From Acidobacteria bacterium Mor1 (GTDB lineage: Bacteria > Acidobacteriota > Polarisedimenticolia > Polarisedimenticolales > Polarisedimenticolaceae), in contig CP011806.1 of assembly GCA_001664505.1 (NCBI GenBank), positions 2,172,487-2,236,486 of the forward strand: 64,000 nt of DNA, read 5' to 3'. Within the stretch, counting starts at the first letter, position 1; each line of letters starts with the position of its first letter. Below the pieces are notes generated by a model. The model made no database searches, was not told where the DNA came from, and saw nothing but the letters and a program-made list of their open reading frames with translations. Below, piece by piece: positions 1 to 25,665 of this stretch. The position numbers were made by a program, and so were the translations under genes.

Positions 1-1280
1 TCGATCGCCGGGTAACCTTCGGCAACGTAGAGGATCAGGTCGGGGAACTTCTGCTCCCAACCCTCCTGGCCATGCCGCAGGAAGTGCACGGCCAACCAGG
101 CCGTCGAGTAGTAGACGTCATGGCGGGTACCGTAGAACTCATCCCGGCTCGAGCCGAGGAGCTTCTCCAGGGTGATGTTTTCCTTGCGCGAGACCGCCTT
201 GCGCACGGTGTCGGCCGAGATCGACTGGTGGGACTTCCCGATCAGCACGCCCCAAGGCCCCCCGAAGAGCCGTTTCTTCGGGGTTCGGCCGGGAATCAGC
301 ACCCCCTTCTTCACCTGAGAGTTCCCCACGTACTCGGCAAAGCCCTCGTCGAGCCAGCGGGGGAACACCACCCCCGGCTTGGCCAGGTAGCGATCGATGA
401 ACGCGTGGGTCGATTCGTGCAGCATGATCGCGAGCAACGACTCGCGGGTCGGCATCTCGGTATGGAACGCGAGCAATCCCAGTGGCGAGTAGAACCCCGC
501 CGACCACTCCACAGACTGGCCTCGTAGCTGCAGGCCCTGGTACTGGGCCCGCGTCTCGAACATGAAGACCACCACCCGGTACGGCTCGGGCTGGGCCTGG
601 ATACGTCCATCGAGAATACCGTGGAGCGCCTTGAAGGTCGCCTCGATGTTGTTGGCCACCACGGCCGCCATGCCCTCTTGCTGAGAATCGGTGTAGACCA
701 CCACCAGCGGAGTGGCGTGCTGTTGAACCTGTTCCTGCTTGAGCTGATCGTTGGCCAGCGCCGCCAACTTCTCCAGCCGCTTCAGCCGTGCCTCGATCGG
801 CATGCTGAGGATCTCGCGCCGCAAGGACTGTCCGCGGTTCGAGCCTCCGGAGTCCATTGCGGAGCTCAACAGCGACCGGCCGCGCTCCAGCACGAACTCT
901 CCCTCGGGCTGTTCGATGCGCTTGGGAAACTGGACGCCCCAACTGAGTTGGGTCGCCACCGGCTTGCCGTCCTCGAGGGCGGGGGCGTAACGCCAACGCT
1001 CGAGGGTTTCCACGACAACCCGGCGGAAGGCGTCGTCCAGCTCCGACGACGGGCGGATCGAGAGGATCTCGACCTCGGCGACGCGACCGAGCGCATCGAC
1101 CTGGATCTGCACCTCGACCTGGGGCTCCAGATCGGTTCCGGCAGCCTCGATCGGCACGATCAGGTTCGGGGTGTAAAGCGGTACCGGCGGGAAGCGCTCG
1201 GGCTCGGCCGCGGCGGAGAAGGCAAACGGGGCCAGGAGAGCTAACAGCAGCCCCAATGGGCGCAAGCGAGTGCCGGGCAT
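1..1280 (-). CDS. Secreted TonB-C domain / HExxH metallopeptidase-like protein (C-terminus off window)
   Basis: The 426 visible codons start at ATG 1280 (upstream GGGGGAT as ribosome site) with a signal peptide (residues 1-24). Residues about 50-118 resemble a TonB C-terminal domain (VxxxIxVDxxGRVxxVEI...ALEDGKPV). The second half is of DUF1570/gluzincin type: HESTH at 288-292 supplies a HExxH zinc motif, and the Glu in GFAEY about 20 residues later is a likely third ligand. A periplasmic or surface peptidase is plausible but unproven. It lies 35 nt downstream of the selenoredoxin gene and is probably co-transcribed with it. The true frame is open to the window edge, so the C-terminus is missing here. 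Confidence 0.85.
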   Translation of the reverse strand, partial: MPGTRLRPLGLLLALLAPFAFSAAAEPERFPPVPLYTPNLIVPIEAAGTDLEPQVEVQIQVDALGRVAEVEILSIRPSSELDDAFRRVVVETLERWRYAPALEDGKPVATQLSWGVQFPKRIEQPEGEFVLERGRSLLSSAMDSGGSNRGQSLRREILSMPIEARLKRLEKLAALANDQLKQEQVQQHATPLVVVYTDSQQEGMAAVVANNIEATFKALHGILDGRIQAQPEPYRVVVFMFETRAQYQGLQLRGQSVEWSAGFYSPLGLLAFHTEMPTRESLLAIMLHESTHAFIDRYLAKPGVVFPRWLDEGFAEYVGNSQVKKGVLIPGRTPKKRLFGGPWGVLIGKSHQSISADTVRKAVSRKENITLEKLLGSSRDEFYGTRHDVYYSTAWLAVHFLRHGQEGWEQKFPDLILYVAEGYPAI

Positions 1281-1315: not shown

Positions 1316-2797
1316 TTATTCGCCGACTTCGATCCGCACCGGAATGTCGTGACGACGGTAAAGGCAAGTTCCGTCGATATCTTCGCACACGTAGTAGACG
1401 GCGTATACCGGCAGTCGCACACCCTTCTCGGCCCCGGCCGGAACCTGGACCTCGAATTCGACCCGGCGGGGTTCGTCGCTGATCCGCTCCCGCGGGATCG
1501 GCACGGTCAGCCGGCGCCGGTCCACCTGCCAGCCCTCGGGCGGATCGATCCAGACCGCCAGTTCCCGGGCTTCGTTGTTCCAGTGGGTGCCGGTCTGCTC
1601 GTTGGGCCGGAACTCCAGGTGCACCCGCACCGATTGCCCCGGCGCCACCTTCTCGGGCACCACGACCTTCTCCACCTCGATGAAGCGTCCCTGATCCCGG
1701 GTGACCTTGCCGCCGGGATCGGGCTCTCCCACCTCCGAAGCATCGGCCTGAAACTCGCGTTGGGGTGAGGTCAACTCGGCGCCGGCGGGTTCCACCACCA
1801 GCGGCAGCGGCTCCTCCTCACGGGCGCTAATCGCGTCACGGGCCTCGGCGACCCAGTCGTAGAACGGGTAGGGCTTGGCCTGGCGCGGCCCGTACTGCTG
1901 GATGCGGCGGCGCCAGATGTAGTTATTGGGATCGATCTCGAGGGCACGGCTCCAGTGCTCGATGGCGTCGCTGAAATCCGTGGCCTCACCCTCGGGGCTG
2001 TCGTAGCGCATGCGCGAGGCGGCGGCCAGACGGAAGTGGGTGTAGCCGTGATCGGCATCGAGAGCGACCGCACTGCGGTACGCATCGATCGCCTCGCTGA
2101 CCCGGCGCTCCCCGCCCCACAACACGAGCTGTTCGGCGTAGGCCCGCCACGCGTCTGCAGTGCCGCTGCGAATCGCCTCGGCCTTGAGTCGGGAGATGTC
2201 CCGGGAAGCGGCGCGGCGGCGATCGCCTCCGTCACCCGCTTCCTTGCCGCCGGTCTTCGAACTCTCTCCGTCGGAGGAATCGCCGGGAGCCGGATAGGTC
2301 TTGTCGACGAACAGCTCGCCGATGTTGGCGGCGTCCCGCTGGCGCAGGCCGACGTGACGCACGATGCCGTGCTCGTCGATCGCCACGGTGACCGGCACGA
2401 CGGTGACCTCGAGCAGATTGAGGGAGTCGACCATTAACGGCCAGTCCATCTGCTTCCACTGCATGAACAGCCGGGCCCGGTCGCCGTGCTGCTCCTGAAG
2501 GATGCCGAGCATCACCAGCTTGCCGTCTTCCTGAAGTTGCCTGGTCGCTTCGTGCCACCCGGGCACGTGTCTTCGGCAGCCTGCTCACCAGGAGGCGAAG
2601 ACGTGGAGCACCACCTTCTTGCCGCGGAAATCCCGGATCGACAGCGGCTGACCGTCCTCGGCCGAGGGCAGGCTCAACTCGGGAAAGGGTTGACCGACCT
2701 CGAACGGGATATCGAGCCCCTGGGCCAGGGCGGTGGTGGCGGGCATCAGCAGCAGGGCGGCCAGCAGCCCCCCCGCGACGAGCGCTCGATCGAACAC
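1316..2797 (-). CDS. Predicted selenoprotein: secreted redoxin (UxxC) with TPR and C-terminal beta domain
   Basis: Read through one in-frame TGA, this is a single 493-residue secreted protein. Residues 1-25 are a signal peptide ending ALA. Residues 30-165 are a TlpA/redoxin-type thioredoxin fold: the strand VVLHVFASW, then Sec71-Ala-Gly-Cys74 in place of CxxC, and a cis-proline at Pro135 in VVPVT. Residues about 216-300 form two TPR-like helical pairs. Residues about 375-493 form a beta-sandwich with Cys471 and Cys478 (CEDIDGTC), reminiscent of the DsbD N-terminal domain. It probably performs thiol-disulfide or peroxide redox chemistry outside the cytoplasm. The start is chosen at GTG 2797 (GAGGAG just upstream, compact signal peptide). 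ATG 2857 is an alternative, but it lies upstream of the likely transcription start. A Cys-to-stop mutation is the main competing explanation. Confidence 0.8.
2551..2567 (-). promoter_or_regulatory. Candidate bacterial SECIS hairpin
   Basis: In the mRNA, 17 nt after the TGA, the segments CGUGCC and GGCACG form a perfect 6-bp stem closing the 5-nt loop CGGGU. The loop begins 24 nt after the UGA and has G at its second position. The published bacterial SECIS criteria are a loop of 3-14 nt starting about 16-37 nt after UGA with a G among its first two bases, and all are met. The hairpin lies inside the coding region, as bacterial SECIS elements do. Folding was done by eye. Confidence 0.65.
2585..2587 (-). 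other. In-frame TGA, predicted selenocysteine codon
   Basis: On the minus strand the codon order is Phe-Ala-Ser-Trp-TGA-Ala-Gly-Cys-Arg. In thioredoxin-fold proteins the residue after this Trp is the nucleophilic Cys of WCxxC, so the TGA replaces exactly the residue that selenocysteine replaces in known UxxC selenoproteins. The frame is open and family-like on both sides: signal peptide and first strand before it, helix, cis-Pro, TPR and C-terminal domain after it. Confidence 0.78.
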
Positions 2798-2872: not shown

Positions 2873-2907
2873 GCGTGACCCAATCCCGCGGCAAGGAAGG
2901 AAGCCAG

Positions 2908-3963
2908 GTGCAGGTCCCACCGTTCAACAAGTTCATGGGCATGGAGCTCGTCCGCAAGGAGGGGGGTGTCTGCGAGGTCGCCCTCGAGCTGCAGCCCCAT
3001 CACTGCAACCGCCGGGGCGTGGCCCACGGCGGGGTGGTCTCGACCCTGCTCGACACGTCGCTGGGAGGCGCCGTGGTCTCCTCGATCCCCAAGGAATGGT
3101 GGTGCGCCACCATCTCGCTGAACGTCCAGTTCATCTCCGGGGGGCGGGGGCGGCTGACCAGCCGCGGGGAGGTCACCCGCCGGGGCAAGAGCGTCGCCTT
3201 TGCCCGGGGGGTGGTGCTGGACGAATCCGAGCGTCTGGTGGCCTCGGCCGAGGGCTCCTGGCACCTGTGGCAGAACAAGCCGGGGGTGATGGCTCCCCCG
3301 CCCCGGGACCACGTGGTCCTGCGGGGCAGCGGCGAACGGGTCGCCGTGGGCAAGATCGTGGCGGTCGGCCGCAACTATGCCGCCCATGCCGAGGAGATGA
3401 ACGCCCAGGTCGGCGAGGAGCCGGTGCTGTTCGAGAAGCCGTCGACGGCGCTGGCCCACGGCGGCGACACCCTGCACCTGCCCCGGGACCGAGGGGCGAT
3501 CCACCACGAGGTGGAGCTGGTGGCGTTGATCGGGAAGCGTTGCCGCAAGGCTTCTCCTGAAGAGGCGGCGGCGGCGATCGCGGGATACGCCGTCGGCCTC
3601 GACCTGACCCTGCGCCAGATGCAGTCCGGCTTCAAGAAGCGGGGCGAGCCCTGGTTCCTGGCCAAGGGCTTCGATCAGTCTGCACCGGTGTCGGTGGTCG
3701 CGCCTGCGGCGGAGGTAGGCGACGGCTCCGGCCTCGACATCTCCCTCGCCGTCAACGGTGAGATCCGGCAACAGGACAACACCTCGAGCATGGTGCGCTC
3801 GGCGGCGGACCTGGTCGCCTTCATCTCGCAGCTGGTGACCCTCGAACCCGGCGACCTGGTGATGACCGGTACGCCCGCGGGAGTCGGCCCGGTCGAGCCG
3901 GGCGATCGACTCGAAGCGACGATCGAGAAGGTCGGCAGCCTGAACCTGCGGGTCGCGGAGTAG
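2908..3963 (+). CDS. Hotdog thioesterase-FAH hydrolase fusion
   Basis: The 351-residue protein fuses two enzyme domains. Residues about 1-130 are a PaaI-type hotdog thioesterase, with GVAHGGVVSTLLDTS as the usual active-site helix entry. Residues about 145-351 are a fumarylacetoacetate hydrolase (acylpyruvase/YcgM) domain: GRNYAAHAEEM, EPVLFEKP, metal ligands in HHEVEL, the Asp of GLDLTLRQMQ, and MTGTPAGVGP. Both act on small acyl or keto-acid substrates, so it may hydrolyse an acyl-CoA and then cleave a 2,4-diketo acid; that pairing is inference. GTG 2908 is chosen because AAGGAAGG lies 7 nt upstream. GTG 2875 is in frame but has no ribosome site. The SDR gene follows after 2 nt. Confidence 0.9.
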   Translation: MQVPPFNKFMGMELVRKEGGVCEVALELQPHHCNRRGVAHGGVVSTLLDTSLGGAVVSSIPKEWWCATISLNVQFISGGRGRLTSRGEVTRRGKSVAFARGVVLDESERLVASAEGSWHLWQNKPGVMAPPPRDHVVLRGSGERVAVGKIVAVGRNYAAHAEEMNAQVGEEPVLFEKPSTALAHGGDTLHLPRDRGAIHHEVELVALIGKRCRKASPEEAAAAIAGYAVGLDLTLRQMQSGFKKRGEPWFLAKGFDQSAPVSVVAPAAEVGDGSGLDISLAVNGEIRQQDNTSSMVRSAADLVAFISQLVTLEPGDLVMTGTPAGVGPVEPGDRLEATIEKVGSLNLRVAE

Positions 3964-24003: not shown

Positions 24004-25665
24004 TCAACGGTTGGCGACCAACCAGACGTCGCGGCGGCTCAGCCGGGTGCGCTCGAGCACCCGCATGCGATCGACCAACTCAGGAGGCAGCAGATCGACC
24101 ACCTCCGCGTTGATCGCGGCGTAGACCACCTCCTCGTTCTGCAGGTGCTCGACCAGGCGCTCGTGCTTCCAGACCTCTTCGGTGTAGACCCCCTTTGAGT
24201 AGAGGGCGAAGGCCTCGGGGGAGTTCCCCAGGTTGAAGGCCAGCACCGGATGCCCGGCGGCACGGGAATCCGCCGAGGCTTCGGCCAGCTGCTCCGAGAA
24301 GTCCCGGGCGGATTTGACCGGATCCATGGCGGGGTAGATCAGGGAAGCCACCAGCAGGTACAGCCCGACGAAACCGAACGCCGGCGCCAGCACCCCCGCC
24401 AGCAAGCGGCCCCGAAGCAACATGCCCAGAGCCGCGATGCCGCCGACCCCGAGACTGATCGCCACGGCGACGACGACGGCAAAAGGAATCTGCGGATGGT
24501 CCCCCAGGTTCGCGACGAGAGCCGCCGCGCCCAGCACGAGCAAGACCGCGGTGATCGCCTGTCCGGCCAGGACCCAACGCCTGGAGATCCGGGTGGCGGC
24601 CTCTTCACCCCACCCGAGCACGTGCCCCACCCCCCGAGCGGTCAGGAGGGCGAAGGCGGGCAGCGACGGGAGCGCGTAGAGCTCCCGCTTCTCGGTAGAG
24701 ATCGTGAACACGATCAGCACGAAGAACGCGGCGACCAGCAGGAAACGGTCGAACGTGACCCTCCGGCGCATGGCCAGCAAGACACCCGCCGGCACGATAC
24801 CGGTCCAGGGCAGCAAGTACGGAGGCATGACCTTCAGGTAGTACCAGAACGGCTGCTTGTGATGCATGCCGCTGATGCTGCGATCGATGAAGTGTTCCCG
24901 CAGAGCGCCGTAGACCGAATAGTCGCCGCCGGTACCCAGGGTCGCCGCGACCATCCAGCCGGCGAGCAGTCCGACGAACAGCAAGATGCCCAGAGGTGAG
25001 AGCAAAACACTCAACGACGCACCCGGCTGGAAGCCGCCATGGGCCTCGCCACCGGGCACCGGCCCGGGAGCCGGGCCGGCGAATCGATCGACGATCCCCG
25101 TAATCGCCACGATCCCGACCGGGAGCAGCAGCCCGATCGGCCCCTTGGCCAGAACCGCCAGCGCCACCGCCGCCCAGAAGAGCAACCCGGGGCCGAGCCC
25201 TTTCCACTCTCCGGCCCGGCGGGCGACGAACGATGAAAGGGCGACCCAGATGCAGAAACAGAGGGTCGCGTCGATCTGGCTCCAGCGGGACTTCTCCCAG
25301 AACATCACCAGGGTGCAGAGGATCAACCCGGCAAGCGCCGCGGTCCGGGGATCGCCGTAGCGCCTTCCCAACCGAATGGTAAGCAGCAGCGTACCCAACC
25401 CGGCGAGCACCGACGGCAGGCGCGCGGTGAACGAGAACACCTCACCGAAGGGCAGGGAGAACAGCGCGATCAGCCAGAAGAACAAGGGCGGCTTGTCGGT
25501 GCTGATCATGCCGTTGACGTGGGGCACGAACCACTCGCCATCGGCGATCATCTCGCGAGCACCCTCGGCGAAGTAGGGTTCGTCGGGCGCCCAGAGGTCG
25601 TAGCCCCAGAGATTGCAGAGGAACAGGACCGCCGCCAGCAGGACGACGGCACGGCGCGGGGTCAT
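24004..25665 (-). CDS. GT39/ArnT-like membrane glycosyltransferase
   Basis: The 553-residue polytopic protein has the ArnT/PMT signature near its N-terminus: WAPDEPYFAEGAREM with the catalytic Asp-Glu, and STDKPPLFFWL. About 11-12 transmembrane segments follow, then a periplasmic domain of about 110 residues. It transfers a sugar from a polyprenyl-phosphate donor to lipid A, glycan or protein at the periplasmic face. The start ATG 25665 overlaps the asparagine synthase stop by 4 nt (ATGA). It is the last gene of the surface-glycan operon. Confidence 0.9.
   Translation of the reverse strand: MTPRRAVVLLAAVLFLCNLWGYDLWAPDEPYFAEGAREMIADGEWFVPHVNGMISTDKPPLFFWLIALFSLPFGEVFSFTARLPSVLAGLGTLLLTIRLGRRYGDPRTAALAGLILCTLVMFWEKSRWSQIDATLCFCIWVALSSFVARRAGEWKGLGPGLLFWAAVALAVLAKGPIGLLLPVGIVAITGIVDRFAGPAPGPVPGGEAHGGFQPGASLSVLLSPLGILLFVGLLAGWMVAATLGTGGDYSVYGALREHFIDRSISGMHHKQPFWYYLKVMPPYLLPWTGIVPAGVLLAMRRRVTFDRFLLVAAFFVLIVFTISTEKRELYALPSLPAFALLTARGVGHVLGWGEEAATRISRRWVLAGQAITAVLLVLGAAALVANLGDHPQIPFAVVVAVAISLGVGGIAALGMLLRGRLLAGVLAPAFGFVGLYLLVASLIYPAMDPVKSARDFSEQLAEASADSRAAGHPVLAFNLGNSPEAFALYSKGVYTEEVWKHERLVEHLQNEEVVYAAINAEVVDLLPPELVDRMRVLERTRLSRRDVWLVANR

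What the first reader, a model, noticed from the sequence alone, without database searches (positions are those of the whole stretch)
1316..2797. Likely selenoprotein: redoxin with UGA at the first active-site cysteine
A TGA at 2585-2587 occupies exactly the nucleophilic Cys position of a thioredoxin-fold W-C-x-x-C site (W-U-A-G-C). Reading through gives one coherent 493-residue secreted protein with signal peptide, redoxin domain including cis-Pro135, TPRs and a Cys-bearing C-terminal beta domain. A random nonsense mutation would rarely hit this codon while the rest stays intact. Sec-containing thioredoxin-fold proteins are established, but I do not recognise this secreted redoxin-TPR-beta architecture as a known selenoprotein family.
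Basis: partly seen in the sequence, partly recalled or inferred. Interest (0 to 1): 0.92.

Follow-up and report, generated by a model that had tools for sequence, protein, structure and literature searches.

The report
Selenium-containing redox protein found in four phyla
An environmental bacterium (phylum Acidobacteriota) has a secreted redox protein whose catalytic residue is almost certainly the rare amino acid selenocysteine, read from a codon that normally means stop; about 80 relatives in four bacterial phyla keep this feature without a single cysteine version, and standard annotation would split such genes in two.

Summary
The gene lies on the minus strand (2797-1316), with an in-frame TGA at 2585-2587 in W-U-A-G-C. 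It is a real selenoprotein gene on all computational criteria. The genome has tRNA-Sec, SelA, SelB and a TGA-containing SelD. About 80 distinct homologues in Acidobacteriota, Gemmatimonadota, Verrucomicrobiota and Planctomycetota all have TGA at this codon; none has Cys, and one divergent paralogue has Ser. A hairpin 23 nt after the UGA is conserved, with compensatory changes and strong synonymous-codon constraint (Val GTG 49/50 against 38% elsewhere), as expected of a bacterial SECIS element. Selection after the TGA is purifying (dN/dS 0.05-0.34). In four Planctomycetota loci the gene sits beside sel genes. The read-through protein gives one confident model (pLDDT 91.8): signal peptide, ResA/TlpA-like domain with UxxC, TPRs, and a C-terminal DsbD_N-like domain with an invariant C-x6-C pair. 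I propose a periplasmic thiol-disulfide oxidoreductase in which Sec71/Cys74 exchanges electrons with Cys471/Cys478. It is close to NCBIfam NF041054 (WAxxUGC) but below that model's cut-off. The kind is known; this family and architecture appear undescribed in what I could search. Selenium itself is not demonstrated.

The parts
1316..2797 (-). selenoprotein gene: redoxin-TPR-DsbD_N-like, 493 aa when UGA is read through (GTG start at 2797-2795, GAGGAG upstream; TAA at 1318-1316)
2585..2587 (-). UGA codon read as selenocysteine 71 (W-U-A-G-C; Cys74 is the resolving residue)
   Evidence: TGA in all ~80 distinct homologues, no sense Cys
2551..2567 (-). SECIS-like hairpin, +21 to +37 from the U of UGA: 6-bp stem CGUGCC/GGCACG, loop CGGGU (2557-2561) with invariant G at loop position 2
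   Evidence: inner 5 pairs standard in 57/57, compensatory changes, rank 1 of 445 hairpins; de novo RNAalifold gives the same hairpin
2723..2797 (-). predicted signal peptide, residues 1-25 (ALA|Q)
   Evidence: read from sequence; helix 2-23 in the model
2336..2698 (-). ResA/TlpA-like thioredoxin-fold domain, residues 34-154, cis-Pro135
   Evidence: PF00578 2e-12, PF08534 6e-12; Foldseek best hits are ResA and TlpA/DsbE-like proteins
1898..2197 (-). TPR region ending in a near-invariant YIWRRRIQQYGPR motif, residues 201-300
   Evidence: Pfam TPR hits, conservation, helices
1319..1690 (-). C-terminal Ig-like, DsbD_N-like domain, residues 370-493
   Evidence: hhalign to a DsbD_N alignment 92.7%; control score 33.8 against at most 15.2 in 30 column shuffles; Ig-like fold
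1385..1387 (-). Cys471, first of the invariant C-x6-C pair
   Evidence: 50/51 and 49/49 homologues; aligns with the first DsbD_N Cys
1364..1366 (-). Cys478, second of the pair
   Evidence: 50/51 and 49/49 homologues; aligns with the second DsbD_N Cys

Best explanation
The gene encodes a secreted selenoprotein. SelB with Sec-tRNA-Sec, positioned by the hairpin 23 nt downstream, decodes UGA at codon 71 as selenocysteine (strongly supported by sequence, not shown biochemically). The protein is a periplasmic ResA/TlpA-like thiol-disulfide oxidoreductase with Sec71 as attacking residue and Cys74 as resolving residue (inferred from fold and position). Its C-terminal DsbD_N-like domain carries the only other conserved cysteines, Cys471 and Cys478. 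I infer that electrons pass between the two centres, so that the protein acts as a self-contained relay towards, or from, an unknown periplasmic partner that the TPR region may hold. Rough odds: Sec decoding 0.97, thiol-disulfide oxidoreductase 0.85, internal relay 0.5.
For: Machinery in the same genome: tRNA-Sec 72.7 bits, SelB 330 bits, SelA 516 bits, SelD 358 bits with its own in-frame TGA. About 80 distinct homologues in four phyla, all TGA. SelA over cut-off in 46 of 52 gene-bearing genomes. Hairpin: inner five pairs standard in 57/57, 11 cells with double-sided changes against 2.0 in shuffles, 0/500; de novo consensus fold gives the same hairpin; hairpin Val codon GTG 49/50 against 750/1950 elsewhere, p 4e-19, loop Gly GGG 36/39 against 431/1683. 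dN/dS after TGA 0.05-0.34. Sel genes adjacent in L089, L094, L097, L118, the last with tRNA-Sec. Read-through model pLDDT 91.8, pTM 0.89. Only four Cys/Sec columns are conserved: 71, 74, 471, 478. DsbD_N homology of the C-terminus. The one homologue without Sec (Ser, L121) also lacks the C-terminal domain. A different Sec redoxin in L038, next to tRNA-Sec, selA and selB, is also fused to a DsbD_N domain.
Against: No protein or selenium data. The fold energy of the SECIS in the window alone is not better than shuffles (z 0.21); the case rests on comparison. DsbD_N is below Pfam's cut-off, and Foldseek ranks other Ig-like folds first. I had no coordinates to measure the distance between the two redox centres. 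No neighbour other than sel genes is conserved, so partner and direction are unknown. Sec machinery is common among relatives (SelB over cut-off in 79 of 100), so co-occurrence alone is weak.
Confidence: 0.78

Rival explanations
1. Nonsense mutation, pseudogene or sequencing error: TGA is a stop in a dead gene that once had Cys.
For: Standard annotation would end the first ORF at 2585 and start another at 2566. One relative (G047, L006) does have a broken frame after the UGA.
Against: TGA at the same codon in ~80 sequences from four phyla, purifying selection after it, SECIS covariation.
Confidence: 0.01
2. UGA is read as a standard residue (for example Trp) by a variant code or by nonspecific read-through.
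For: UGA read-through occurs in some bacteria (general knowledge).
Against: Many homologues end in TGA themselves; the flanking Trp is a standard Trp codon; the position is the catalytic Cys of a thioredoxin fold; dedicated Sec machinery is present.
Confidence: 0.01
3. A Sec peroxidase (peroxiredoxin-like) rather than a thiol-disulfide oxidoreductase.
For: Matches AhpC-TSA and Redoxin models; Sec peroxiredoxins exist (review PMC13188914).
Against: The peroxiredoxin PxxxT/SxxC motif is absent (LHVFASWU: Leu at -7, Ala at -3); best structural matches are ResA/TlpA-like.
Confidence: 0.15
4. A Sec oxidoreductase with no internal relay: the C-terminal domain only binds a partner, and its Cys pair is a structural disulfide.
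For: Ig-like domains are common binding modules; weak NEW3 match.
Against: The pair is invariant and aligns with the catalytic pair of DsbD_N; a separate Sec redoxin-DsbD_N fusion exists (PMC9402790).
Confidence: 0.35

Closest known systems
NCBIfam NF041054, WAxxUGC_long (ResA-like selenoprotein)
   Same: Redoxin plus TPR-like C-terminus, Sec at the same position, similar hairpin after the UGA; nearest in the tree
   Different: U-G-C active site instead of U-A-G-C; extra N-terminal region; no C-terminal DsbD_N-like domain. The window protein scores 70 bits against a cut-off of 300.
'Redoxin family protein', PF08534, UxxC, in the selenoprotein inventory of PMC13188914 (HEU0032618.1; earlier MBA3499694.1 in PMC9312934)
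   Same: Domain and UxxC motif fit
   Different: Sequence not available here, so whether it is this family is untested. No TPR or DsbD_N architecture is mentioned for it in the text searched.
Prx-like U/CxxC protein fused to DsbC/DsbD_N (PF11412), PMC9402790
   Same: Sec redoxin plus DsbD_N in one chain
   Different: TPRs are not mentioned and Cys forms exist. A candidate example here (L038, SADWUPFC motif) is another family.
ResA/TlpA/CcmG thiol-disulfide oxidoreductases
   Same: Fold, secreted, cis-Pro, CxxC position
   Different: Sec instead of Cys, dipeptide AG, fused TPR and DsbD_N-like domains
DsbD N-terminal domain (DsbD_N)
   Same: Ig-like fold with a C-x(n)-C pair near the C-terminus that aligns
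   Different: Below Pfam cut-off; here at the C-terminus of a soluble Sec redoxin, no membrane domain

Membership tests
Selenoprotein | in-frame UGA at a conserved catalytic codon | tested here: met
   ~80 distinct homologues TGA, 0 Cys, 1 divergent Ser
Selenoprotein | SECIS hairpin just after UGA with G at the start of the loop | tested here: met
Selenoprotein | Sec machinery in the genome | tested here: met
   tRNA-Sec, SelA, SelB, SelD
Selenoprotein | selenium in the protein | not testable with these tools
   needs 75Se labelling or mass spectrometry
ResA/TlpA-like thiol-disulfide oxidoreductase | thioredoxin fold with C/UxxC and cis-Pro | tested here: met
ResA/TlpA-like thiol-disulfide oxidoreductase | reductase activity on protein disulfides | not testable with these tools
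   no assay
NF041054 WAxxUGC_long | score over curated cut-off of 300 bits | tested here: not met
   70.2 bits; all 51 members match the model, the best with E 1.3e-24, far below the strength of a true member
NF041054 WAxxUGC_long | WAxxUGC motif (U-x-C) | tested here: not met
   FASWUAGC (U-x-x-C)
Peroxiredoxin | PxxxT/SxxC(U) catalytic motif | tested here: not met
   Leu64 and Ala68 at those positions
DsbD_N (PF11412) | score over Pfam gathering cut-off | tested here: not met
   14.5 bits against 25
DsbD_N (PF11412) | profile homology with the catalytic Cys pair aligned | tested here: met
   hhalign 92.7%; with Cys masked score 26.2 against a shuffled maximum of 15.2
Redoxin family protein of PMC13188914 | sequence relationship to HEU0032618.1 | not tested
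   sequence not held in the tools

The most novel reading that the evidence does not exclude
An undescribed, Sec-only protein family (no natural Cys form) in four phyla, in which a Sec redoxin and a DsbD_N-like domain in one soluble chain form an internal Sec-to-dithiol electron relay, evolved separately from another Sec redoxin-DsbD_N fusion.
Probability: 0.4. Interest if true: 0.72.

Novelty: new variant of a known kind. Interest (0 to 1): 0.62.

Why it matters
Most bacterial selenoprotein families have many Cys homologues, so why Sec is kept is hard to test. This family seems to have none in about 80 sequences, so it offers a case where Sec may be required. It also adds a widespread selenoprotein to phyla where annotation would split such genes at the UGA, and links Sec chemistry to a DsbD-type periplasmic relay in a form that point mutants can test.

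Tried and rejected
Rfam scan of the window: nothing. Single-sequence folding of the SECIS: not better than shuffles, so comparison was used. ARAGORN hit at 25067-25159 (anticodon 'gctg') looks spurious. Conserved gene neighbourhood: none besides sel genes. Cys homologues: sought in four phyla, none found; one weak match (G424:C197, L165) could not be aligned at the site. DsbD itself did not appear in the structural hit lists for the C-terminal model; this is not evidence against. PDB profile search of the C-terminal domain: nothing convincing. Plasmids: no homologue. Papers for 'WAxxUGC' or for a redoxin-TPR selenoprotein: none found. The Haft and Tolstoy 2025 paper (PMC12013261) is not held.

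Full report
Observation. The gene is on the minus strand, 2797 to 1316. The genome is a 5.985 Mb single contig. It belongs to Acidobacteriota: relatives placed in its family and class are the same contigs as named Acidobacteria MAGs (G012:C22 and L074, both 9012 bases; G002:C63 and L103, both 16664 bases).

Sec machinery. The genome holds tRNA-Sec (72.7 bits, C1:1275848-1275941, also found by ARAGORN), SelB (330 bits), SelA (516 bits) and SelD (358 bits), the last with an in-frame TGA. The SelA model separates well: among 14 control genomes only one passes its cut-off.

Homologues. A phylum search, a scan of named genome contigs and searches in two further phyla gave about 80 distinct homologues from Acidobacteriota, Gemmatimonadota, Verrucomicrobiota and Planctomycetota. 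Wherever the site could be read it was TGA, in W-U-A-G-C, or rarely W-U-Q-G-C or W-U-V-G-C. No Cys codon was found. One divergent paralogue, L121, has Ser; it also lacks the C-terminal domain, in a genome that has SelA. Counts are of distinct sequences; several loci are the same gene fetched twice. SelA passes its cut-off in 46 of 52 distinct gene-bearing genomes. The exceptions are probably incomplete drafts; one of them, that of L089, has selB and selD beside the gene.

Selection and RNA. Codons after the TGA evolve under purifying selection (dN/dS 0.05 to 0.34 in 15 pairs). A hairpin covers +21 to +37 from the U of UGA. Its inner five pairs are standard in 57 of 57 sequences, with both-sided changes such as G-C to C-G when Val-His becomes Leu-Gln. 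RNAalifold proposes the same hairpin without guidance, and it ranks first of 445 possible hairpins for the share of paired cells. Double-sided changes number 11 against 2.0 in shuffles, but shuffles ignore relatedness. Apart from pairing counts, the Val codon in the stem is GTG in 49 of 50 cases against 38% elsewhere in the same genes, and the loop Gly codon is GGG in 36 of 39 against 26%. The loop has an invariant G at position 2, as described for bacterial SECIS elements (general knowledge). The fold energy of the single sequence is not unusual.

Gene neighbourhood. The gene lies next to selD and selB (L089), selA, selB and selD (L094), selD (L097), and selD, selB, selA and tRNA-Sec (L118); in G012 selA lies 3 kb away. 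No other neighbour is conserved.

Protein. The read-through protein gives one confident model (pLDDT 91.8, pTM 0.89). The N-terminal domain matches ResA and TlpA-like proteins. The peroxiredoxin motif is absent. Across 51 homologues only four Cys/Sec columns are conserved: 71, 74, 471 and 478. The C-terminal domain is Ig-like. It matches Pfam DsbD_N only weakly (E 0.038). A direct profile comparison with 15 DsbD_N domains from relatives gives 92.7% and aligns the Cys pair. In my own run of the comparison with other settings (70% probability) the score was 33.8, against at most 15.2 for 30 column-shuffled templates, and 26.2 with the Cys masked. I therefore treat it as DsbD_N-like, not as a Pfam member.

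Relation to known families. All 51 members match NF041054 (WAxxUGC_long), but the window protein has 70 bits against a cut-off of 300. WAxxUGC-type proteins (L166, L167, L168; L168 passes the cut-off, the others score 135 and 166 bits) have U-G-C; L166 and L167 lack the C-terminal domain. In a tree the 80 U-A-G-C rows form one group (100/100) with the U-G-C type next to it (long branches, so the exact order is tentative). The 2026 inventory of prokaryotic selenoproteins lists a 'Redoxin family protein', UxxC, HEU0032618.1 (PMC13188914), and a 2021 study reports a Prx-like U/CxxC protein fused to PF11412 (PMC9402790). The first may be this family; I could not obtain its sequence. The second fits L038 better, a different Sec redoxin with motif SADWUPFC fused to a DsbD_N domain beside tRNA-Sec, selA and selB.

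Verdict. Sec decoding is as well supported as sequence can make it. Oxidoreductase function is inferred from fold and motif. The internal relay is a hypothesis with comparative support. The kind is known; the family and its architecture appear new in what I could search.

Noticed in passing
L038 (G066), about 330-1484, + strand: A different Sec redoxin (SADWUPFC) fused to a DsbD_N domain (YQACDDKICYNP), followed by tRNA-Sec, selA and the start of selB: an independent Sec redoxin-DsbD_N fusion inside a sel locus.
   Followed up: partly
L121, 4584-5915: Homologue with Ser (W-S-R-V-C) at the Sec position that also lacks the C-terminal Cys-pair domain, in a genome that has SelA.
   Followed up: partly
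L006 (G047), about 1400-1750: Remnant of the family gene: UGA site kept, reading frame broken shortly after; decay or assembly error.
   Followed up: partly
L108, 4962-6443: Family gene whose 3' end reads into a polynucleotide phosphorylase / S1 sequence; fusion or misassembly.
   Followed up: no
window 2875-3963, + strand: One ORF that looks like a hotdog thioesterase fused to a fumarylacetoacetate-hydrolase domain, divergent from the selenoprotein gene (by eye, not searched).
   Followed up: no
window 1-1280, minus strand (L127:5918-7267): Downstream secreted protein with a TonB-C-like start and a HESTH peptidase-like motif; no NCBIfam match.
   Followed up: partly
window 25067-25159: ARAGORN reports a tRNA with four-base anticodon 'gctg'; probably spurious.
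   Followed up: no
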